The notes below the pieces were generated by a model. That model was not told the DNA's origin and made no database searches. It worked only from the letters and a program-made list of their open reading frames with translations. From NCBI GenBank assembly GCA_015904045.1, contig JABMDG010000044.1, forward strand, positions 1 through 8,468: DNA of 8,468 nucleotides, read 5' to 3'. The position numbers and the translations under genes were made by a program. The DNA is from Nitrospira sp. (GTDB lineage Bacteria; Nitrospirota; Nitrospiria; Nitrospirales; Nitrospiraceae). The number at the start of each line of letters is the position of its first letter. The stretch's first letter is position 1. This document shows positions 1 to 8,202 of the stretch, one piece after another.

Positions 1-1
1 G

Positions 2-274
2 ATGATGGAGGACCAGCTTGTGTTTGCGTACGATCCGAACGAGTTTTTTTGCAAAGATTTCTCGATGGATGACGAGCACATCATTATCGTTGGTGGCACA
101 ACCGCGGAGCGTGGACAGCGATCGTCGGCCTCAGGCGTGGTCTTCATTCTGAACCGTCGATTTGAGCTGCTGTCCAAAGAGATCATCAGTGGGCTTGGCG
201 GCTTCAACGGCTGCCGCTTAATGGGATGCGATTACAGCAAAGGGTATGCAGGTTCAGCCGGGGAACCCACGTGA
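2..274 (+). CDS. Hypothetical protein, probably the C-terminal end of a gene that starts left of the window
   Basis: The open frame reaches the left edge and ends at TGA 272-274. The two Met codons at positions 2 and 5 may be internal, because no upstream sequence is available to show a ribosome binding site. The 90 visible residues are mixed in character, with alternating hydrophobic stretches (HIIIVGGT at about 26-33, GVVFILNRRFELL at about 45-57) that look like beta strands. This is loosely reminiscent of one blade of a beta-propeller, but no family is recognised. No catalytic motif, signal peptide or membrane segment is seen. The stop lies 34 bases before rfbD on the same strand, so it is probably co-transcribed with the sugar genes that follow. 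A run of seven T at 44-50 could be a slippage or sequencing-error site. The function is unknown. Confidence 0.5.
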   Translation: MMEDQLVFAYDPNEFFCKDFSMDDEHIIIVGGTTAERGQRSSASGVVFILNRRFELLSKEIISGLGGFNGCRLMGCDYSKGYAGSAGEPT

Positions 275-308
275 TACCGATCCACGTTCCACACGATAAG
301 GGCGTGCG

Positions 309-1166
309 ATGCGCATTGTGGTGACGGGTTCCGGCGGCCAGCTGGGCAGCGATCTGTGCCGAAGGCTGGCGAACGAAACAGTCATACCCATGGATCTTCC
401 GGAGTTCGATCTGACTCAGCCGGAAATCGAATCGACGATTGTTGACGCCAAACCGGACGTGGTCATCCATGCCGGCGCGTATACGGATGTGGATGGGGCG
501 GAGCGCACCCCGGATCTCGCCATGGCGGTGAATCGTGATGGAACGGCTCGGGTGGCGCGGGCTGCCGCCCAAATCGGAGCCCGCCTGATCTATGTGTCCA
601 CGGACTACGTGTTCGATGGAACTGCTACAGTTCCCTACACTGAGCAGGCTGCTCCAAATCCGATCAACGCCTACGGAATGTCGAAATGGCTGGGCGAACA
701 GGCCGCCCTTGCATCGGGCGCCGACGCCCTCGTTGTCCGGACAGCCTGGCTCTATGGACATCACGGGAAGAATTTTGTGAAGTCGATCATGAGCGCGGCC
801 CGGCGAGAGCCCGCATTAAGGGTCGTGAGCGATCAGCGAGGCTGTCCGACTTTCGCCGAAGATCTGGCCTCCGCGCTCAGTGCGCTCATGGCGAAGCACG
901 TGAGCGGGGTGATCCACGTTGCGAATCGGGGAGACTGCACCTGGCACGAATTTGCCGAGGCGATTGTGCGTGAAATGGGACTCGCGGTTCCTGTGGCTGC
1001 CATCAGTACCGAGGCAGCGGGACGTGTCGCCAAACGGCCACGGTTTTCAGTCTTGAATCAGGATCGTCTGGTGTCGCTGGGGATTGTGATGCCGGAATGG
1101 CGCCGGTCCCTGGCACAATTCGTCAGCATGCAAGCGAGCGGCAGTTTCGCAGGAGGGGGTGCATGA
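309..1166 (+). CDS. rfbD: dTDP-4-dehydrorhamnose reductase
   Basis: This NADPH-dependent short-chain reductase performs the last step of dTDP-L-rhamnose synthesis, reducing dTDP-4-dehydro-L-rhamnose in the cytoplasm for LPS or other surface glycans. The 285 residues match the usual family length. The N-terminus is a Rossmann fold with the glycine-rich loop GSGGQLG (residues 7-13). HAGAYTDVDGAE (54-65) is a typical cofactor-side motif of the RmlD family. The catalytic region has STDYVFDG (97-104) followed by YGMSK (122-126), which gives the Tyr122/Lys126 pair. VRTAWLYG (143-150), SDQRGCPT (174-181) and the C-terminal RPRFSVLN (243-250) are also family hallmarks. The start ATG has a modest AAGGG at 298-302 with a 6-base spacer. 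The stop overlaps the next start in an ATGA arrangement, so translation of the two genes is probably coupled. The rfbA, rfbB and rfbC partners are not in the window. The family call is firm. Confidence 0.93.
   Translation: MRIVVTGSGGQLGSDLCRRLANETVIPMDLPEFDLTQPEIESTIVDAKPDVVIHAGAYTDVDGAERTPDLAMAVNRDGTARVARAAAQIGARLIYVSTDYVFDGTATVPYTEQAAPNPINAYGMSKWLGEQAALASGADALVVRTAWLYGHHGKNFVKSIMSAARREPALRVVSDQRGCPTFAEDLASALSALMAKHVSGVIHVANRGDCTWHEFAEAIVREMGLAVPVAAISTEAAGRVAKRPRFSVLNQDRLVSLGIVMPEWRRSLAQFVSMQASGSFAGGGA
1151..1159 (+). promoter_or_regulatory. Strong ribosome binding site for the HAD phosphatase gene
   Basis: AGGAGGGGG lies inside the last codons of rfbD, 3 bases before ATG 1163 when counted from its final G, with the AGGAG core about 7 bases upstream. 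It decides the start of the phosphatase: a longer open frame reaching back to 1097 exists, but it has no comparable site and would overlap rfbD by 70 bases. Confidence 0.75.
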
Positions 1167-1741
1167 CAACGAAAACTCGGAAGTCTGGCGTTTCCCGTCA
1201 ACCTGCCGTGAGCCTTTTGCGGCACATCCGGTTATTTGCCACGGATGTGGACGGCGTGCTGACCGATGCCGGCATGTACTATTCCGAGTCGGGCGATGAA
1301 TGGAAAAAGTTCAACACTCGCGATGGCATGGGCATCAAGTTGCTTCAACGAGCAGGTCTGATCACGGCGATTGTCACACAAGAGCGCACGAGGCTGGTAG
1401 CTCGCCGGGCTGAAAAACTTGCCATCCCGGAATTGCACCAGGGTGTCATGGATAAACTATCGGTGATTCGCGATATAGCCGCCCGACACGGAATTTCTCT
1501 TGATCAGGTCGCCTATATCGGCGACGATGTGAACGACATCGAAGCGTTGAAGGCCGTGGGCTTGTCCGCTTCTCCTGCCGATGGTCTTCCGGAAGTCGTG
1601 CGAGTTGTGAAATACCTGTGCCAGAAGAAGGGTGGGGAAGGGGCAGTCCGTGAATTGGCGGAGATGATTCTGAAGGCGCAAGGTCAGGTTTCAAGTTTCA
1701 AGGGGCAAGTTTCAAGTTCAGGAAACGATCGTAGATCATGA
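1163..1741 (+). CDS. kdsC: KdsC-like HAD-family phosphatase (3-deoxy-D-manno-octulosonate 8-phosphate phosphatase or a related sugar-acid phosphatase)
   Basis: This C0-type HAD phosphatase likely removes phosphate from Kdo-8-P, or from a nonulosonate-9-P, to supply LPS or capsule sugars. HAD motif I is DVDGVLTD (28-35; nucleophile Asp28, acid/base Asp30). The substrate loop SGDEWKKFNTRDGMGIKLL follows at 43-61. Motif II is Thr72, motif III is Lys98, and motif IV is GDDVND (120-125). GGEGAVRE (157-164) is the tail that closes the neighbouring subunit's active site in KdsC tetramers. Motif II reads IVTQERT where classical KdsC usually has ITGRxS. That resembles the HAD domains linked to NeuA-type enzymes, so the exact substrate is open. 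The start at 1163 is fixed by the AGGAGG site and the 4-base overlap with rfbD. The last 19 or so residues (from about 174) are unlike the family and are encoded by a 7-base repeat array that duplicates the peptide GQVSS. Confidence 0.85.
   Translation: MTTKTRKSGVSRQPAVSLLRHIRLFATDVDGVLTDAGMYYSESGDEWKKFNTRDGMGIKLLQRAGLITAIVTQERTRLVARRAEKLAIPELHQGVMDKLSVIRDIAARHGISLDQVAYIGDDVNDIEALKAVGLSASPADGLPEVVRVVKYLCQKKGGEGAVRELAEMILKAQGQVSSFKGQVSSSGNDRRS
1681..1722 (+). repeat. Degenerate 7-base tandem array in the 3' end of the phosphatase gene
   Basis: Six consecutive heptamers can be read: AGGTCAG, GTTTCAA, GTTTCAA, GGGGCAA, GTTTCAA, GTTCAGG. Three are identical. The array lies just before the stop of the phosphatase gene and encodes its non-conserved C-terminal tail. 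Similar short-period patches occur at other gene boundaries in this window. Confidence 0.8.
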
Positions 1742-1756
1742 TGGGAGACTCAACAG

Positions 1757-3265
1757 ATGCCTTCTCGTAGACCTTGGACCTTGGGCCTTGATCTGAATTC
1801 TTCTCTCTATCCGGTGATTATGGCAGGCGGAAGCGGGACGAGGTTTTGGCCCTTAAGCCGGCATTTGTTCCCGAAGCAGCTCTTACGCATCGGTGGGAAC
1901 GAGACATTGATTCAACAGACGATGCGGCGTGTATCCGGTTGTGCCAAGCCGGCCCATGTCTTGATATCCACCAATGCAGCCCAAGCGGAGTTGATTAAAG
2001 GACAATTGGCTGACTGGAAGGACGACATCCAGGACAATTTTGTGTTGGAGCCTGAGGGCCGGAATACCGCGCCCGCCATCGCGTTAGCTGCCCTTGAAGT
2101 GCTCAGGCGTGATCCGAACGGGCTGATGCTGGTCGTGCCGGCCGATCATGTGGTGACTGGACAACGTGAGTTCGAGGCGGCGGTCGGGTTAGCTTCGCGG
2201 TTGGCAATGGAAGGCTATCTGGTGACGTTCGGGATCAAGCCGGTCAGACCGGAAACAGGTTATGGATATATCAAGCCGGACAGCAAGGCTCTGTTGGGGA
2301 AGAAGGGCACACTGCGCGGCTATCGAATCAGTAAATTCGTGGAGAAACCCAATGCCGCCAAAGCGGCTCAGTATCTCAAGGCGGGGGGCTATTACTGGAA
2401 TAGCGGCATGTTCGTGTGGCGCGCGGCAACGATCCTCGAGGAGATCCGCCTCTATCAGCCGAGTCTCGGCAAAGCGATGGATCACATAAATGACATGCAG
2501 ACCGCAGGCGCAAACAGGCAGGTCATCGACGAGGCCTATCGCCGCGTCGCTTCCGTCTCGATCGACAACGGTGTGATGGAACAATCGTCTAAGTCGGCGG
2601 TGGTGCCGGTGTCGTTCAAGTGGTCGGATGTGGGCAGTTGGGGAAGTCTGGATGAAGTGGCGGCAAAGAACAAGGCCGGCAATGTGGTGACCGGGCGGGT
2701 GATCGACGTCGAAAGCACCGACTCGATCGTGTATGCCGACCGGCGGGTGGTGGCGACGATCGGTCTGCATGATATGGTTGTCGTCGATACGCCTGATGCC
2801 ACGCTGGTCTGTCCGAAGTCACGCGCGCAGGATGTGAAGAAGGTCGTCGAGATTTTGAAGCAGCAACAGGCCCCGGAACATCTGGAACACCTGACGGTTC
2901 AGCGGCCCTGGGGGTCGTATACCGTGCTGGAAGAAGGGCCCGGGTTCAAGGTCAAACGGGTGACGGTGAGTCCGGGCGGGCGATTGTCGCTTCAGTTGCA
3001 CCACAAACGCAGTGAACATTGGGTGGTAATCGCCGGTACGGCGCGAGTGACGAGAGGAGAAGAGATCTTTGACTTACACGTGGGACAGAGCACTGCCATT
3101 CCGGTTGAAACCCAGCATCGATTGGAAAACCCAGGCACGGAGACGCTGCATATCATCGAGGTGCAGAATGGGCCGTATCTTGGCGAGGATGATATAGTCA
3201 GGTTCAAAGATGATTATGGACGCGGCGTCGAACTGCTAGGAAGTTCAAAAAGTGTAAAGGGTTGA
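1757..3265 (+). CDS. manC: Bifunctional mannose-1-phosphate guanylyltransferase / mannose-6-phosphate isomerase (type II)
   Basis: The enzyme interconverts fructose-6-P and mannose-6-P and makes GDP-mannose from mannose-1-P and GTP, in the cytoplasm. The N-terminal nucleotidyltransferase domain carries GGSGTRFWPLSR (24-35), PKQ (39-41), VPADH (127-131), FVEKPN (194-199) and NSGMFVW (215-221). The C-terminal cupin isomerase domain carries RPWGSY (383-388), the metal-ligand region QLHHKRSEHW (413-422) and the later AIPVETQHRLENPG strand (447-460). At 502 residues it is slightly longer than the usual 470-480, and the excess is at the N-terminus. The first 16 residues precede the conserved LYPVIMAGG and partly come from a 7-base repeat. 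ATG 1757 was kept because GGGAG at 1743-1747 sits 9 bases upstream; TTG 1781 is a weaker alternative. It starts 15 bases after the phosphatase stop. Its product pathway requires the phosphomannomutase that follows. Confidence 0.93.
   Translation: MPSRRPWTLGLDLNSSLYPVIMAGGSGTRFWPLSRHLFPKQLLRIGGNETLIQQTMRRVSGCAKPAHVLISTNAAQAELIKGQLADWKDDIQDNFVLEPEGRNTAPAIALAALEVLRRDPNGLMLVVPADHVVTGQREFEAAVGLASRLAMEGYLVTFGIKPVRPETGYGYIKPDSKALLGKKGTLRGYRISKFVEKPNAAKAAQYLKAGGYYWNSGMFVWRAATILEEIRLYQPSLGKAMDHINDMQTAGANRQVIDEAYRRVASVSIDNGVMEQSSKSAVVPVSFKWSDVGSWGSLDEVAAKNKAGNVVTGRVIDVESTDSIVYADRRVVATIGLHDMVVVDTPDATLVCPKSRAQDVKKVVEILKQQQAPEHLEHLTVQRPWGSYTVLEEGPGFKVKRVTVSPGGRLSLQLHHKRSEHWVVIAGTARVTRGEEIFDLHVGQSTAIPVETQHRLENPGTETLHIIEVQNGPYLGEDDIVRFKDDYGRGVELLGSSKSVKG
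1771..1791 (+). repeat. Three 7-base repeats inside the manC N-terminal extension
   Basis: The heptamers ACCTTGG, ACCTTGG and GCCTTGA follow one another directly. They encode part of the non-conserved residues 6-12 of ManC, before the conserved domain begins. The array is short, so chance is possible, but the same period is seen 50 bases upstream at the end of the phosphatase gene. Confidence 0.55.
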
Positions 3266-3320
3266 AAGTTCGAATGTGCGCCGTCAACTTTCCAACTTGC
3301 TGACTTTCTAACCTTTGAAC
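3242..3320. repeat. Head-to-head 8-base-period repeats between manC and the mutase gene
   Basis: The left half reads in 8-base steps as AAGTTCAA, AAAGTGTA, AAGGGTTG, AAAGTTCG, AATGTGCG. The right half, from 3286, reads AACTTTCC, AACTTGCT, GACTTTCT, AACCTTTG, which is the same type of unit (GAAAGTTN) on the other strand. The two halves therefore form an imperfect inverted repeat. It covers the last manC codons and nearly the whole 63-base gap, ending just before the GAGGA ribosome binding site of the next gene. Confidence 0.7.
3261..3296 (+). other. Potential RNA hairpin spanning the manC stop codon
   Basis: GTTGAAAGTT (3261-3270) can pair with AACTTTCCAAC (3286-3296), giving 10 base pairs with one bulged C and a 15-base loop. 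The manC TGA lies inside the left arm. No U-run follows, so it is not a standard intrinsic terminator. It might attenuate transcription or protect the manC 3' end, or it may simply reflect how the repeat inserted. The pairing is read from the sequence; any role is inference. Confidence 0.5.
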
Positions 3321-3328
3321 GAGGAACC

Positions 3329-4387
3329 ATGGGTTTATTTCGCGAATATGACCTTCGAGGAATTGTCGGCACCGAGCTCACCAAGAATACGGCTGAACAA
3401 CTGGGGCGGGCCTATGCGACGTATGTCGCCGGGCATGGTGTCAAGACGGTCAGCCTCGGACGCGATGGGCGGCTGAGTTCCCCGGCGCTGCACAAGTCGC
3501 TGCTGAACGGTTTGCTGGCCGGTGGGCTCGACGTCATCGACATCGGCATGTGCTCGTCACCACTCCTGTATTTCTCGTTGTTCACCTTGCCGGTTGGCGG
3601 CGGGATCATGATCACTGGCAGCCATAACGCGGCCGAGTACAACGGATTCAAGATCTGTATCGGCAAAACAGCGATCCATGGTGAGGACATTCAGCGACTC
3701 AGGCAGGTGATGGAAGCGGGAACGTTCGTGTCGGGGGCCGGGCGGGTATCTGAACATCCGATCATTCCGGACTATCTGTCGTATCTGAAGAAGAGTTTTG
3801 CCCATGTGAACGCGCAACGGTTGCATGTGGTGATCGATTGTGGGAATGGGGCTGCTTCGTTGGTCGCCAAGCAAGCCTTGGAGTTGCTGGGGTGCAAGGT
3901 GACCGGGCTCTACTGCGATCTCGACGGCCGATTTCCGAACCATCATCCTGACCCTACTGTCCTCGATAACTTGTCGGATTTGATGCGTGCCGTGAAAGAG
4001 CACAAGGCCGACGTGGGAATCGGGTACGACGGCGATGCGGATCGGATCGGCGCCGTCGACGAACAGGGCGAGGTGCTGTGGGGAGACCGGCTGCTGGTGC
4101 TCTATGCGCGGGATATTTTGGCTGAGAAGCCGGGCAGTACGATTATTTCAGAGGTGAAGGCCTCACAGAGCCTCTATGACGATATCGCCGCGCGCGGCGG
4201 GAGGCCGATCATGTGGAAAACCGGTCATTCGCTGATTAAGGCGAAGATGAAGGAAGAGTCCGCCGTCCTGGCCGGTGAAATGTCGGGGCATATGTTTTTT
4301 GCCGGCCGCCACTTCGGCTATGACGACGCGGTATATGCGTCCTGCCGGCTCGCGGGTTCAAGAGATTCTGAGCTGGTACGGCAGTGA
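3329..4387 (+). CDS. Phosphomannomutase/phosphoglucomutase, 3'-truncated (domain 4 missing)
   Basis: This alpha-D-phosphohexomutase would convert mannose-6-P to mannose-1-P (and possibly glucose-6-P to glucose-1-P) for the neighbouring ManC. Domain 1 has the phosphoserine loop TGSHN (96-100, Ser98), followed by AAEYNGFK where PPEYNGFK is common. Domain 2 has the Mg-binding loop DGDADR (234-239). Domain 3 has the sugar-specificity motif GEMSGH (316-321). The family match continues through FGYDDAVYASCRL (about 329-341) and then breaks off into AGSRDSELVRQ and a stop. Full-length enzymes have about 450 residues; this one has 352 and lacks domain 4 with its phosphate-binding RxSNT-type loop. The last 11 residues are the aldolase 5' sequence read in another frame. 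ATG 3329 has GAGGA at 3321-3325. The protein is probably inactive or badly impaired. The gene is best regarded as broken, unless the junction is an assembly error. Confidence 0.88.
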   Translation: MGLFREYDLRGIVGTELTKNTAEQLGRAYATYVAGHGVKTVSLGRDGRLSSPALHKSLLNGLLAGGLDVIDIGMCSSPLLYFSLFTLPVGGGIMITGSHNAAEYNGFKICIGKTAIHGEDIQRLRQVMEAGTFVSGAGRVSEHPIIPDYLSYLKKSFAHVNAQRLHVVIDCGNGAASLVAKQALELLGCKVTGLYCDLDGRFPNHHPDPTVLDNLSDLMRAVKEHKADVGIGYDGDADRIGAVDEQGEVLWGDRLLVLYARDILAEKPGSTIISEVKASQSLYDDIAARGGRPIMWKTGHSLIKAKMKEESAVLAGEMSGHMFFAGRHFGYDDAVYASCRLAGSRDSELVRQ

Positions 4388-5267
4388 TAATGCCGGTACC
4401 AAGACCAATATTGCGCGTATGCTGCGATCCGGCAAGCTGGCGGGGACCGGTAAGCTGGTCATTCTGCCGGTCGATCAAGGGTTCGAGCATGGGCCGGCAC
4501 GAAGCTTTGCGCCGAACGCGCCCGGCTACAATCCGCACTATCACTTTCAACTTGCCATTGACGCCGGTTGCAATGCCTATGCGGCACCGCTGGGATTTTT
4601 GGAAGCCGGCGCGGGCCACTTCGCCGGGCAGATTCCGTTGATCCTCAAGTTGAACAATCATGATGTGCTGCATGACGACAAAGATCCGCTTCCGTCGGTC
4701 ACCGGCAGTGTGAAAGATGCCCTTCGGCTGGGCTGCAGCGCCGTAGGATTTACGGTTTATCCCGGTTCCGTCCATTGCAACGCTATGTATGAGCAGTTGA
4801 GGGCGATTGCTGAGGAAGCAAAGGAAAGCGGATTGGCCGTCGTGGTCTGGTCTTATCCGCGTGGATCCGCGCTCAGCAAAGAAGGAGAAACCGCCATCGA
4901 TGTCGTCGCCTACGCGGCGCACATTGCGGCTCAACTTGGTGCGCATATCATCAAGGTGAAGTTGCCGACTGCCCATCTGGAACAGGCTGCGGCCAAGAAG
5001 GTCTATGAAGCGACGCAGATTCCGATCAAGACATTGGCGGAGCGTGTCCAACATGTGGTGCAGAGTTCGTTCGACGGGCGGCGGATCGTGATTTTCTCAG
5101 GCGGCGCGAAAAGCGAAGATAAGAACGTGTTTGAAGAAGCGAAGGCCATTCGCGACGGGGGAGGATTCGGTAGCATCATCGGCCGAAATTCGTTCCAACG
5201 TCCGAAAGCAGAAGCGATTACGTTTCTTCACACGATCATGGACATCTATGCAGGCAAGATCCGGTAA
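4335..5267 (+). CDS. fbaB: Class I fructose-bisphosphate aldolase, DhnA/FbaB type, with a displaced start
   Basis: This Schiff-base aldolase of central carbon metabolism cleaves or forms fructose-1,6-bisphosphate in the cytoplasm. With a start at ATG 4335 it has 310 residues. Recognisable parts are LPVDQGFEHGP (44-54), the barrel strand LILKLNNHD (102-110), WSYPRG (172-177), HIIKVKLP (204-211; holds the candidate Schiff-base lysine, Lys207 or Lys209), FSGG (254-257) and IIGRNSF (281-287), the last two for phosphate binding. The conserved protein begins at SRVQEILSWYG (6-16). Only four residues precede it when ATG 4335 is used, and these derive from the mutase gene in another frame. ATG 4320 and GTG 4275 are other in-frame starts, and ATG 4419 would lose conserved residues. 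None has a clear ribosome binding site, so expression may depend on coupling to mutase translation, which ends at 4387. The family call is firm and the start is uncertain. Confidence 0.88.
   Translation: MRPAGSRVQEILSWYGSDNAGTKTNIARMLRSGKLAGTGKLVILPVDQGFEHGPARSFAPNAPGYNPHYHFQLAIDAGCNAYAAPLGFLEAGAGHFAGQIPLILKLNNHDVLHDDKDPLPSVTGSVKDALRLGCSAVGFTVYPGSVHCNAMYEQLRAIAEEAKESGLAVVVWSYPRGSALSKEGETAIDVVAYAAHIAAQLGAHIIKVKLPTAHLEQAAAKKVYEATQIPIKTLAERVQHVVQSSFDGRRIVIFSGGAKSEDKNVFEEAKAIRDGGGFGSIIGRNSFQRPKAEAITFLHTIMDIYAGKIR
4345..4356 (+). other. Deletion/fusion junction between the mutase and aldolase genes
   Basis: Left of this point the mutase frame matches its family (YASCRL, then normally an EIL-like helix). 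Right of it the aldolase frame matches its own N-terminus (SRVQEIL). The two frames differ by one, so the mutase runs out of frame to TGA 4385-4387. The bases GCTCGCGG at the junction could belong to either gene, which is consistent with short-homology deletion. The missing material is the mutase domain 4, any spacer, and the aldolase start with its ribosome binding site. Confidence 0.7.
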
Positions 5268-5279
5268 GGCCGCACGAAT

Positions 5280-5303
5280 ATGAAGAGCATGGACCAGGCA
5301 TGA
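5280..5303 (+). other. Possible 7-residue upstream ORF coupled to the HtrA start
   Basis: ATG 5280 opens a frame encoding MKSMDQA and ends in a TGA that overlaps the HtrA start as ATGA. AAGG at 5266-5269 lies 10 bases upstream, whereas the HtrA ATG itself has only a distant AAGAG (5283-5287). It could couple HtrA translation to the upstream gene. Such a short frame can easily arise by chance. Confidence 0.2.
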
Positions 5304-6850
5304 TGAATCAGTTGGATCAAGAACAGAGGCCTCCGCAAGGGGGCCGCAAGTGGATCGTCACGGCGTCATTGTTGACGGCGGGAATGATTATCGGTTTCGT
5401 CGTCGCGTCAGATCTCGGTTGGCTGCCGACCGGCCATGCCGTTCCCGATGCTTCGTCCGTTCCGATCGCCAGACCGGTCGCAACAGCCCCGCAACCGGTC
5501 TTGTCAGGCGGTGGCGGACAGACATTCGTTGAGATCGCCAAGGCGGTGAAGCCGGCGGTCGTGAATATCTATGCCAGCAAGAGCAGCGGACGCGGAGAGG
5601 GCCCGCATGGAGGGCCCCTCGACGATCCGCTTTTCCGAAAGTTTTTTGGAGATGAGTTTTTCAGGCGGTTTGAGCAGCAGCCGAAGGATCGCAAGGAGCG
5701 GGGGTTGGGGTCAGGCGTCATTGTCGAGTCCAACGGCCTGATCATCACCAACAACCATGTGGTCGGCAAGGCGGATGAAATTCGCGTCACGCTGTCTGAT
5801 AAGCGGGAGTTCAAGGCGAAGCTTATCGGCACCGATCCGAAAACGGATGTCGCCGTCGTCCAAATTGATGCGACAGGATTGCCGACCGTCGCCTGGGCCG
5901 ATTCGGATCAATTGGAAGTCGGCGAGTTTGTCCTGGCTGTCGGCAATCCCTTCGGACTGACGCAGACGGTGACACTGGGCATTGTGAGTGCGCTGGGGCG
6001 GGCCGCAGGCATTGCGGAGTATGAGGACTTCATCCAGACGGATGCGGCGATCAATCCGGGCAATTCCGGTGGTGCCCTGGTCAATGTGCGAGGCGAACTG
6101 GTGGGGATCAATACGGCCATTTTCAGCCAGAGCGGCGGCAATATGGGCATCGGTTTCGCAGTCCCGAGTAATATGGCCCAGTCAATCATGGGACAACTGG
6201 TGCAGACCGGGAAGGTCGTGCGCGGGTGGCTCGGCGTGTCGATTCAGGATCTGACACCGGAATTGGCCTCCCAGTTCGGCCTCGGCGATACGAAGGGCGT
6301 GCTGGTCAGCGATGTCATGGAGGACAGTCCCGCCAAGAAGGCCGGGTTCGAACGAGCCGATGTGATCGTGGAATATGACGGCAAACCGATGGACTCGCCG
6401 GCCCACCTTCGCAACGCGGTGGCGCAGACTCCGGTCGGGAAGAAGGTGACGGTCAAAATCATTCGCGACAAGAAGCCGAGAACCATCGAGCTGGCCATCG
6501 CTGAACAGCCCAAGACGATGGCGCAATCCGGCGACGATGATGGAGGCGAGTCGGTCACACCGACAGGCGTCTTATCCGGTCTGGATGTGCGGGAGCTGAC
6601 GGAAGAGCTCGCCAACCGGTATGGCCTGAAATCCGGCGAACGTGGTGTGGTCGTGGTCCGGGTAAAACCCGGCACCCCGGCTGAGGAGATCGGTGTACGT
6701 GAGGGCGATCTCATCATGGAAATCAACCGCGAGGCCGTGACGTCGGTCAGGGCCTACGAGAAGGTTGCCGGCAAGTTACCGAAGGATCACCCTGTGCTGT
6801 TGTTGTTGAAACGGCAGGGGAGAACCATTTATCTCACGCTTCGTCCATAA
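5300..6850 (+). CDS. degQ: DegP/DegQ (HtrA) family periplasmic serine protease
   Basis: This envelope quality-control protease and chaperone degrades or refolds misfolded exported proteins. The 516 residues are typical. A basic start followed by one hydrophobic segment (about 18-36, WIVTASLLTAGMIIGFVVA) acts as a signal anchor or signal peptide; no lipobox cysteine is seen. The trypsin-like domain (about 75-300) has the complete triad His153 (TNNHVV), Asp183 (TDVAVV) and Ser256 (GNSGG). PDZ1 is at about 308-400 (RGWLGVSIQDL onward) and PDZ2 at about 425-515 (LSGLDVRELTEE onward), joined by an acidic linker (SGDDDGGES). The segment at 95-134, rich in Gly, Phe and charged residues, corresponds to the LA loop. 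The gene starts 33 bases after the aldolase stop with a weak ribosome binding site; ATG 5303 is equally possible as the start. The symbol could also be degP or mucD, as paralogues cannot be separated by eye. Confidence 0.93.
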   Translation: MMNQLDQEQRPPQGGRKWIVTASLLTAGMIIGFVVASDLGWLPTGHAVPDASSVPIARPVATAPQPVLSGGGGQTFVEIAKAVKPAVVNIYASKSSGRGEGPHGGPLDDPLFRKFFGDEFFRRFEQQPKDRKERGLGSGVIVESNGLIITNNHVVGKADEIRVTLSDKREFKAKLIGTDPKTDVAVVQIDATGLPTVAWADSDQLEVGEFVLAVGNPFGLTQTVTLGIVSALGRAAGIAEYEDFIQTDAAINPGNSGGALVNVRGELVGINTAIFSQSGGNMGIGFAVPSNMAQSIMGQLVQTGKVVRGWLGVSIQDLTPELASQFGLGDTKGVLVSDVMEDSPAKKAGFERADVIVEYDGKPMDSPAHLRNAVAQTPVGKKVTVKIIRDKKPRTIELAIAEQPKTMAQSGDDDGGESVTPTGVLSGLDVRELTEELANRYGLKSGERGVVVVRVKPGTPAEEIGVREGDLIMEINREAVTSVRAYEKVAGKLPKDHPVLLLLKRQGRTIYLTLRP

Positions 6851-6882
6851 TGGGGGAAGCGGTTTCTTCAAAATCTCCTTGA
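6850..6882 (+). other. Short ORF linking degQ to ispD: leader or displaced ispD start
   Basis: ATG 6850 overlaps the degQ stop as TAATG and encodes MGEAVSSKSP before a TGA at 6880-6882. That TGA overlaps the TTG 6879 start of ispD as TTGA. One extra base in the upstream run of five G (6852-6856) would join this ATG in frame to ispD. It is therefore either a coupling leader, the remnant of the true ispD start after a one-base loss, or chance. Confidence 0.35.
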
Positions 6883-7616
6883 AAGTCGGTCAAGCGCGTC
6901 AGGAGTTGCACGTTCCGCGAGTTGTCGCCATCGTTCCCGCAGCGGGGCGGGGATTGCGCATGGGCGGCGCGGTTCCGAAGCAGTTTCTGGCCTTGGGGGG
7001 AGAACCGCTGGTCGTCCACTCGCTCCGCGTGCTTCAGGCTTCTCCGGTCATCGATGAAATCGTGATGGCCGTGCCGCAAGCCGATCTCGACTATTGCCTC
7101 AACGACCTCGCCGTCCGCTTCGGGTTTTCCAAAGTCACGAAGGTGGTCGCGGGTGGAAAGGAGCGTCAGGATTCAGTCCGCCATGCGCTCGAGCATGTGT
7201 CGAAGGAAACGGAAATCGTGCTCGTGCACGATGCCGTGCGGCCGTTTGTGACTGAAGGCATGGTGACCGAGGTGGTCGAGGCGGCGCGCCTGGTCGGCGG
7301 GGCGATCGTGGCCTTGCCGATGCGTGATACGGTCAAACAGGTCGGAGCTGAACGTCGAATTGAACGGACGGTTGATCGCCAGCCGCTGTGGCTGGCCCAG
7401 ACCCCTCAGGCATTCCGGCGGGATCAATTGCTGGCCGCCCATTGCAAAGCCTATGCTGAGAAGGTACATGCCACCGATGATGCATTTATATTCGAGTGGG
7501 CCGGCCGCCCTGTCGTCGTGGTGGAGGGAAGCGGCGAAAATATTAAAGTCACGAGACCGGAAGACATGATCATCGGGGAAGCGATCTTGGCGTCGCGAAA
7601 GGGACGTTCTGCGTGA
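6879..7616 (+). CDS. ispD: 2-C-methyl-D-erythritol 4-phosphate cytidylyltransferase
   Basis: This is the third step of the MEP isoprenoid pathway: it joins CTP and 2-C-methyl-D-erythritol 4-phosphate to give CDP-ME in the cytoplasm. Motifs seen are the nucleotide-binding loop PAAGRGLRMG (20-29) with PKQF (33-36), AGGKERQDSVRHAL (91-104), VLVHDAVRPFV (114-124), ALPMRDTVK (145-153), LAQTPQAFR (172-180), ATDDA (198-202), and the C-terminal GENIKVTRPEDM (219-230). The total of 245 residues is about 10-15 more than usual, from the N-terminus before RVVAIVPAAG. The frame offers no ATG upstream of the conserved core. Candidate starts are TTG 6879 and TTG 6906, neither with a well-placed ribosome binding site. 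The start is therefore doubtful, although the conserved core is intact. The gene follows degQ by 28 bases and precedes ispF, its usual pathway partner. Confidence 0.92.
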   Translation: MKVGQARQELHVPRVVAIVPAAGRGLRMGGAVPKQFLALGGEPLVVHSLRVLQASPVIDEIVMAVPQADLDYCLNDLAVRFGFSKVTKVVAGGKERQDSVRHALEHVSKETEIVLVHDAVRPFVTEGMVTEVVEAARLVGGAIVALPMRDTVKQVGAERRIERTVDRQPLWLAQTPQAFRRDQLLAAHCKAYAEKVHATDDAFIFEWAGRPVVVVEGSGENIKVTRPEDMIIGEAILASRKGRSA

Positions 7617-7714
7617 ACCGTTCAACGTGAATCGCGAGTTGCGGGATGCCTCCGAGGATGACGTGGCTTTACGGATACCGATTGACGTGTAACGATTAAC
7701 GAGGAGCGAAGCGT
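7611..7714. repeat. ispD-ispF spacer with 7-base periodicity and an imperfect inverted repeat
   Basis: The 98-base gap between ispD and ispF shows loose 7-base steps near both ends: CGTGAAC, CGTTCAA, CGTGAAT, CGCGAGT on the left, and TGACGTG, TAACGAT, TAACGAG on the right. ACGTGAATCG (7625-7634) can pair with CGATTGACGT (7679-7688) at 9 of 10 positions across a 44-base loop. No U-run or clear promoter was recognised. It resembles the other decayed short-period patches here, but the match is weak. Confidence 0.4.
7701..7706 (+). promoter_or_regulatory. Ribosome binding site of ispF
   Basis: GAGGAG lies 8 bases before ATG 7715. It supports this start and shows that ispF can be translated independently of ispD despite the shared pathway. 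Confidence 0.7.
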
Positions 7715-8197
7715 ATGCGCATAGGGTACGGCTACGATGTCCATCCGCTGGGGCCGGAGCGGAAACTGATTCTCGGCGGGATCGAGATTCCTCACAGCAA
7801 AGGACTGCTTGGGCATTCCGATTCCGATGTCTTGGTGCATGCGGTGTGTGACGCGTTGTTAGGCGCGATGGGGGAAGGCGATCTGGGCCGTCACTATCCC
7901 AGCTCCGATCCAAAATACAAGGGGATCTCCAGCCTCAAGCTCTTGGAAGACGTGACATCCAAGCTGAAGGCGAAAGGCTACCGGGTGTGCAATATCGACA
8001 CGGTGATCGTGGCGCAGGCACCTCGTCTCGGTCCGCATCTGGCCGCCATGCAGAAGAAGATGGCGGAGACCGCCGGCATCGATCCCCGCTTGGTGAATGT
8101 GAAGGTCAAGAGCGGTGAAGGGCTCGATGCCGTCGGCAAGGAAGAGGGCATGATTGCCCACGCGGTGTGTTTGATCGATAATGTTGAGAAGTTGTAA
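7715..8197 (+). CDS. ispF: 2-C-methyl-D-erythritol 2,4-cyclodiphosphate synthase
   Basis: This is the fifth step of the MEP pathway: it cyclises CDP-ME 2-phosphate to MEcPP and releases CMP. The enzyme works as a cytoplasmic homotrimer with zinc. The metal ligands Asp8 and His10 are in YDVHPLG (7-13) and His42 is in VLVHAVCDALLGA (39-51). GHSDSD (33-38) and GEGDLGRHYPSSD (53-65) are standard. The nucleotide-side strand reads NVKVKSGEGLDAVGKEEG (128-145), keeping Glu135. E. coli has Phe7, Phe139 and Arg142 lining the trimer's central cavity; the aligned residues here are Tyr7, Ala139 and Lys142. Length (160) is normal and the GAGGAG site fixes the start. ispD lies upstream; the ispE step is not encoded in the window. 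Confidence 0.95.
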   Translation: MRIGYGYDVHPLGPERKLILGGIEIPHSKGLLGHSDSDVLVHAVCDALLGAMGEGDLGRHYPSSDPKYKGISSLKLLEDVTSKLKAKGYRVCNIDTVIVAQAPRLGPHLAAMQKKMAETAGIDPRLVNVKVKSGEGLDAVGKEEGMIAHAVCLIDNVEKL

Positions 8198-8202
8198 CGC
8201 TT

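What the first reader, a model, noticed from the sequence alone, without database searches (positions are those of the whole stretch)
4320..4420. A scar fusing two broken gene ends: the mutase loses its 3' end and the aldolase loses its start
The mutase frame matches its family through YASCRL at about 4349 and then becomes out-of-family sequence. The aldolase matches its family from SRVQEIL at about 4350, one frame over. Two conserved proteins meeting within a few bases, in different frames and each lacking its adjacent end, is what a deletion between neighbouring genes would leave. The ambiguous GCTCGCGG at the join fits short-homology recombination. About 100 codons plus the spacer and aldolase start region are missing. 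The alternative is a misassembly.
Basis: partly seen in the sequence, partly recalled or inferred. Interest (0 to 1): 0.75.

Follow-up and report, generated by a model that had tools for sequence, protein, structure and literature searches.

The report
Two-lineage splice with coupled gene deletion
In this stretch of nitrifying-bacterium DNA a block from a different Nitrospira lineage sits exactly where about 2.3 kb of the usual genes are missing, which looks like either a rare sloppy DNA import or an assembly chimera; only the raw reads can say which.

Summary
In detail: a phosphomannomutase/phosphoglucomutase frame (3329-4387) leaves its family after residue 341 at 4352, and a class I aldolase picks up its family at 4353, one frame over. 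The scar is larger and stranger than described. In 16 of 16 Nitrospira loci that hold both genes, 1.6-2.7 kb lie between these points, with fructose-1,6-bisphosphatase in all 16 and a DUF3108 gene in 14. No listed match crosses the join in 77 of 79 genus genomes; two had no listed rows. The join is also a lineage switch: 1-4352 and 6139 onward belong with G001 and L016 (90-98% by piece), 4353-6106 with L015 (97%), with 100/100 tree support each way. The right switch lies in a 32-bp run shared by both lineages; the left join shares no base between the parents seen, so 'short-homology' is not supported at the join itself. Best reading: import from another Nitrospira species, homologous at one end and illegitimate, with deletion, at the other (HFIR-like), about 0.5. 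Assembly chimera about 0.35; import then separate deletion about 0.14. Reads were not available.

The parts
3329..4351 (+). In-family part (341 codons) of a phosphomannomutase/phosphoglucomutase (nearest model PgmG), recipient-lineage type; listed kin are mostly 466 aa, so about 125 codons are lost
   Evidence: 94.7% DNA identity to L016, 78.6% to L015 (3329-4352)
4352..4387 (+). Foreign tail of the truncated mutase frame (11 residues and stop)
   Evidence: ORF; no family match beyond residue 342
4352..4353 (.). Illegitimate join: recipient-type ...GGCTCG | CGGGTTC... donor-type, 0 bp microhomology with the parents seen; about 2.3 kb missing relative to G001 and L016
4353..6106 (+). Donor-lineage block (L015-like, 97.3%): aldolase from its 4th codon, intergenic region, and 5' part of degP/htrA; its right edge lies somewhere in 6107-6138
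4320..5267 (+). Aldolase frame, now with in-frame ATGs only inside the mutase gene (4320 MTTRYMRPAGSRV..., 4335 MRPAGSRV...; GTG 4275 also possible); native start and its purine-rich leader lost
   Evidence: start choice and lack of a ribosome site judged by eye
6107..6138 (+). 32-bp run identical in both lineages inside degP; the switch back to recipient type happens here; longest such run in 4353-8200
6139..8197 (+). Recipient-lineage DNA again: 3' part of degP, ispD, ispF
   Evidence: 6139-6850 is 97.7% L016; gene names
309..3265 (+). Upstream recipient-lineage genes: rmlD, KdsC-family phosphatase, GMP/PMI (manC-like)
   Evidence: lineage (before 606 compared with G001 only)

Best explanation
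A real interspecies recombinant made in one step by homology-facilitated illegitimate recombination (HFIR). A DNA fragment from an L015-like Nitrospira, carrying at least the aldolase from its 4th codon and the 5' part of degP, entered a G001/L016-like Nitrospira. Its right side paired with the resident degP and crossed over within a 32-bp identical run (6107-6138). Its left side was joined without homology to the resident mutase gene. The resident DNA between was lost; about 2.3 kb of it was not brought back: the mutase domain IV end, DUF3108, fructose-1,6-bisphosphatase, and the aldolase start with its leader. Shown: the mosaic, both switch points, the gene loss relative to relatives. Inferred: that it happened in a cell, in one step, and the route of entry. 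Expected consequence (inferred): the mutase is dead, the resident FBPase is gone, the aldolase is poorly started; the archaeal-type bifunctional FBP aldolase/phosphatase that both nearest relatives carry could cover gluconeogenesis.
For: Sites where G001 and L016 agree against L015: 1200-4352 recipient 523, donor 29, other 24; 4353-6050 donor 280, recipient 22, other 9; 6201-6850 recipient 118, donor 4, other 1; 6900-8200 recipient 262, donor 27, other 23; last donor site before the switch 6106, first recipient site 6139. dS to L016 and L015 is 0.19 and 1.30 in the mutase, 1.51 and 0.14 in the aldolase. Trees put the window with L016/G001, then L015, then L016/G001 again, 100/100 each; of the 12 other loci common to the three pieces, the only large change of nearest neighbour is L015's, whose partner in the middle piece is the window. 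L016 and G001 align in one unbroken piece, 93.6%. No word over 9 bp is common to the parents within 300 bases of the left join, too short for an overlap- or k-mer-based assembler, yet the two sides are neighbours in the same order and strand in 16 of 16 loci, which random ligation would rarely give (inference). The aldolase frame stays open with an in-frame ATG. Published HFIR products pair insertions of about 1 kb with deletions of about 1 kb, and 3 of 4 E. coli HFIR clones had no homology at the join (PMC3240628, abstract and passages). Archaeal-type FBP aldolase/phosphatase is in G001, G006 and G060. A ComEC-family gene is in G001, G006 and G060, weak support, since it also rings in 10 of 14 control genomes.
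Against: No second copy of the join: not in the 77 genus genomes with listed rows; none of the 120 listed of 8000 scored mutase relatives carries the foreign tail. Class I FBPase is kept in 49 of 49 near-complete genus genomes, 77 of 79 overall. The truncated mutase shows no decay (dN/dS 0.08 against L016, 0.07 for L016-G001). The right switch sits in the longest run shared by the lineages in 4353-8200, which an assembler with k near 31 would also choose. HFIR usually shows 3-10 bp of microhomology (PMC3240628). Nitrospira populations in one study recombine little, one population excepted (PMC8751384, abstract and passages). Crossovers at about 20% divergence are rare (general knowledge).
Confidence: 0.5

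Rival explanations
1. Assembly or library chimera between two Nitrospira species in one sample: the contig leaves the recipient-type genome at 4352, follows the donor-type genome to degP, and slips back at the shared 32-bp run.
For: The right switch is in the longest shared run of 4353-8200 (32 bp; the others 29 or less), where a k near 29-31 graph would join two genomes. Chimeric contigs are common in short-read metagenome assembly: 22.15 per genome for megahit and 2.63 for SPAdes in one benchmark (PMC11261854, passages). No second copy found. Mutase without decay. It would remove a gene kept in 49 of 49 near-complete genomes.
Against: At the left join the parents share no base, and within 300 bases no word over 9 bp, so a k-mer join is not possible there; a random ligation chimera would have to hit the same locus, same strand, about 2.3 kb on, in another species (inference). 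Two separate artefacts within 1.8 kb are needed. A longer shared run (38 bp, 3158-3195) on the left was not used. No N in the window, so no scaffold gap is marked.
Confidence: 0.35
2. Two steps in a real genome: first an ordinary homologous import of L015-like DNA whose left edge lay inside the stretch now missing, later a deletion from the recipient-type mutase to the donor-type aldolase start that removed that edge.
For: Needs no coupling of illegitimate joining to import; the same final sequence results. The locus loses genes elsewhere: DUF3108 is absent in L025 and reduced to a weak partial match in L043, and class I aldolase is missing or a remnant in G013, G044, G070.
Against: Two events must overlap by chance and both be recent; no intermediate seen among the listed rows of 77 genomes.
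Confidence: 0.14
3. Fixed compact arrangement with a functional short mutase.
For: None found.
Against: 70 of 79 genus genomes have the locus mutase matched to model position 450 or more of 460; the other nine are one frameshift (G006), one in several pieces (G045), two at contig ends (G051, G062) and five without a listed locus copy (G004, G016, G052, G071, G088). Domain IV is absent here.
Confidence: 0.01

Closest known systems
Homology-facilitated illegitimate recombination (HFIR) products in naturally competent bacteria and in E. coli conjugation
   Same: Homologous crossover at one end, illegitimate join at the other, insertion of donor DNA coupled to deletion of resident DNA, sizes near 1-2 kb (PMC3240628, passages)
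   Different: Here the imported block is itself homologous (about 81%) to the resident locus; the join is blunt although 3-10 bp is usual; seen in an unplaced Nitrospira sequence, not in a selected recombinant
Interspecies chimeric contig of a short-read metagenome assembly
   Same: Lineage switch inside a shared run of 32 bp; single occurrence
   Different: The other switch has no shared word of use and drops about 2.3 kb at a syntenic place
NHEJ-type (Ku/LigD) deletion join
   Same: Blunt join without microhomology
   Different: Ku family found in G060 (donor-like) but in neither G001 nor G006; end joining alone does not explain the lineage switch

Membership tests
HFIR product | Crossover by homology at one end | tested here: met
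   Switch within 6107-6138, 32 bp identical in both lineages
HFIR product | Illegitimate join at the other end | tested here: met
   Recipient GGCTCG|TCGAG, donor GAGAT|CGGGTTC, window GGCTCG|CGGGTTC
HFIR product | Insertion coupled to loss of resident DNA | tested here: met
   1,754-1,786 bp donor block; 2,307 bp (G001) or 2,260 bp (L016) between the joined points in relatives
HFIR product | 3-10 bp microhomology at the illegitimate end (usual, not universal) | tested here: not met
   0 bp with the parents seen, at most 1 bp by codon argument; an unused GAGATC lies 2-8 bases away; usual range and exceptions from PMC3240628
HFIR product | One event in one cell | not testable with these tools
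   Final sequence is the same for two steps; reads and strains not available
Assembly chimera | Shared word of assembly length at the right switch (6107-6138) | tested here: met
   32 bp
Assembly chimera | Shared word of assembly length at the left switch (4352/4353) | tested here: not met
   None at the join; longest common word within 300 bases is 9 bp
Assembly chimera | No single molecule spans the switch; coverage step | not testable with these tools
   No reads; the window's own assembly is not held
Phosphomannomutase/phosphoglucomutase, intact | Domains I-IV | tested here: not met
   I, II and most of III; IV absent; L015 copy has all four
Class I fructose-bisphosphate aldolase (NF006704) | Score over the curated cut-off | tested here: met
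   523.9 bits against cut-off 277, model 5-307 of 308

The most novel reading that the evidence does not exclude
A natural, interspecies HFIR event caught in a nitrifier with both parental lineages known, in which the recipient lost its bacterial-type FBPase and its phosphomannomutase in one stroke and lives because its kin carry an archaeal-type bifunctional FBP aldolase/phosphatase: a snapshot of non-orthologous enzyme replacement made permanent by a sloppy import.
Probability: 0.25. Interest if true: 0.6.

Novelty: new member of a known kind. Interest (0 to 1): 0.4.

Why it matters
If real, it shows that imports between Nitrospira lineages about 20% diverged can proceed with homology at one end only and can delete conserved metabolic genes, and it gives both parental types and both edges at near base resolution outside a selected laboratory transformant. 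If an artefact, it is a useful warning: the protein-level picture (broken gene next to an intact one) looks like biology, while the lineage switch exposes a possible chimera.

Tried and rejected
Short-homology deletion within one genome: set aside because the two sides belong to different lineages and share no base at the join. I looked for a donor allele reading MGSRV, which would have given a 6-bp GGCTCG overlap: none among the 120 listed aldolase relatives (113 have D, 3 E, 3 N at residue 3, one outlier P0122). Donor already carrying the deletion: rejected as sole cause because recipient-type sites continue to 4346-4352, directly at the join. 'Loss is lethal, hence artefact': weakened, because G001, G006 and G060 carry archaeal-type FBPA/P; against that, GlpX is in 0 of 79 and class II aldolase in 1 of 79; phosphofructokinase family is in 72 of 79 (whether any is reversible was not tested). 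Exact join in viral contigs: 0. No fold prediction was run. Papers: 'Nitrospira' with 'illegitimate recombination' gave 2 papers, neither on this by title (listing only); 'Nitrospira', 'gluconeogenesis', 'bisphosphatase' gave 21, of which the 10 listed show nothing on Nitrospira FBPases by title (listing only). PMC13344027 was seen in passages only.

Rows dropped: one search kept only loci matching at least 85% of each region (20 loci given plus the window; 15, 16 and 14 rows remained, window counted). In one search only rows with at least 80% aldolase identity were printed (22, of which L014, L098 and L099 are all G001); 6 of these 22 had no distance because the mutase was not on the piece. 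One search was a search with the L015 aldolase, not the window's.

Full report
What is there. The window carries rmlD, a KdsC-family phosphatase, a GMP/PMI gene, the mutase, the aldolase, degP/htrA, ispD and ispF. The mutase frame 3329-4387 follows its family for 341 residues and ends in 11 foreign residues; domain IV is absent. The nearest model is PgmG (NF046027), below its cut-off, which no genome of the genus passes (0 of 79). The aldolase frame picks up its family at SRVQEIL from 4350-4353, one frame over, lacking only the first residues.

What relatives have. In G001, the nearest genome held, the window's two pieces meet at 4352|4353 in the query but lie 2,306 bases apart in the genome. 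In 16 of 16 loci where both genes are on the piece, 1,583-2,682 bp lie between. A search of these 16 and the window with the L015 proteins finds FBPase in 16 of 16, DUF3108 in 14 of 16 plus a weak partial match in L043 and none in L025, and neither in the window. In L015 the mutase has domain IV and the FBPase both its domains. Across 79 genomes of the genus no listed match runs over the join: left pieces end at query 417-427 and right pieces begin at 425 or later; the list was cut, and G016 and G071 have no listed rows, so this covers 77 of 79. 70 of 79 have the locus mutase matched to model position 450 or more of 460. Among the 120 listed mutase relatives (8000 scored) none has the foreign tail.

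The join is a lineage switch. Identity in 100-base steps falls from about 95% to about 82% against L016 and rises from about 78% to about 96% against L015 at the join, and reverses near 6107-6138. By piece, the flanks are 92.2% (1-4352) and 90.5% (6920-8178) to G001 and 92.3%, 94.0% and 93.1% to L016, and 97.7% to L016 in 6139-6850. At sites where G001 and L016 agree against L015 the window is recipient-type at 523 of 576 left of the join, donor-type at 280 of 311 in 4353-6050, recipient-type at 118 of 123 in 6201-6850 and at 262 of 312 in 6900-8200. Of the 29 and 27 donor-type sites in 1200-4352 and 6900-8200, 16 and 16 lie in 3242-3320 and 7587-7693, mostly between genes, where the alignment is poor. 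Synonymous distances between the two lineages are 1.1-1.5, so these are distant species, not strains. Trees of the three pieces place the window with L016 and G001, with L015, and with L016 and G001 again, each at 100/100. L016 and G001 align in one unbroken piece at 93.6%.

The two edges. The right edge lies in 6107-6138, 32 bp identical in both lineages and the longest such run between 4353 and 8200. At the left edge the parents seen share no base: recipient-type DNA continues TCGAG after GGCTCG, donor-type DNA has GAGAT before CGGGTTC. Unseen alleles would hardly give more than 1 bp, given the residues there in 119 of 120 mutases and 119 of 120 aldolases. The longest word common to both parents within 300 bases of the break is 9 bp; a 6-bp GAGATC lies 2-8 bases from the join and is not used.

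How it most likely arose. One event explains both edges: a fragment from an L015-like cell crossed over by homology in degP and was joined without homology to the mutase, deleting what lay between. That is the pattern of HFIR: about 1 kb inserted with about 1 kb deleted, usually 3-10 bp of microhomology, but none in 3 of 4 E. coli clones (PMC3240628, abstract and passages). A ComEC-family gene is present in G001, G006 and G060, but also in 10 of 14 controls; whether these organisms take up DNA is unknown. An import followed by a separate deletion would leave the same sequence.

Why it may be an artefact. The right edge is just where an assembler with a word near 31 would cross between genomes, chimeric contigs are common in some assemblers (PMC11261854, passages), the mutase fragment has not decayed, a gene kept in 49 of 49 near-complete genomes would be gone, and one Nitrospira study found low recombination in most populations (PMC8751384, abstract and passages). 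Against this, the left edge offers no word of assembly length, and the joined points are syntenic. Without reads I put it at about 0.65 real (0.5 one step, about 0.15 two steps) to 0.35 artefact.

Consequences if real (inferred). A mutase lacking domain IV should be inactive (recalled family knowledge). The aldolase has lost its leader and would start at ATG 4320 or 4335 inside the mutase frame without a ribosome site that I could see. Class I FBPase has one match in 76 genomes, two pieces in one, and none in two incomplete ones, so no spare copy of that type is expected; but G001, G006 and G060 hold a full-length archaeal-type FBP aldolase/phosphatase, a family recalled to do both reactions, which could replace both lost activities.

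Noticed in passing
G001:C32, G006:C79, G060:C9: Archaeal-type FBP aldolase/phosphatase (PF01950) is patchy in Nitrospira: over the cut-off in 32 of 79 genomes, but near full length in 23 rows from 22 genomes; much of the rest are fragments.
   Followed up: partly
G013, G044, G070; G071 incomplete: These genomes lack the class I aldolase NF006704 over its cut-off (G013 keeps a match of 38 model positions) and have no class II aldolase match, so their FBP aldolase is unclear.
   Followed up: no
L016 2694-4871 (G006:C74): The nearest relative's mutase lacks 11 bp against G001 at about residue 407, which shifts the frame into the DUF3108 gene: a second damage to the same mutase end, or a sequence error.
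   Followed up: partly
L025 and L043 between mutase and aldolase: DUF3108 is not found in L025 and only as a weak partial match in L043; the gaps are the two shortest of 16 (1,583 and 1,771 bp).
   Followed up: yes
window 3242-3320 and 7587-7693: Two mostly intergenic stretches where the window aligns poorly to L016 and G001 and shows clusters of donor-type letters; no repeats found there. Alignment noise or further small replacements.
   Followed up: partly
window 1682-1718: Two direct copies (16 nt, 88% alike) of GGTCAGGTTTCAAGTT near the end of the KdsC-family frame.
   Followed up: no
G060:C4:179973-180527: A Ku family match in the donor-like genome, none in G001 and G006.
   Followed up: no
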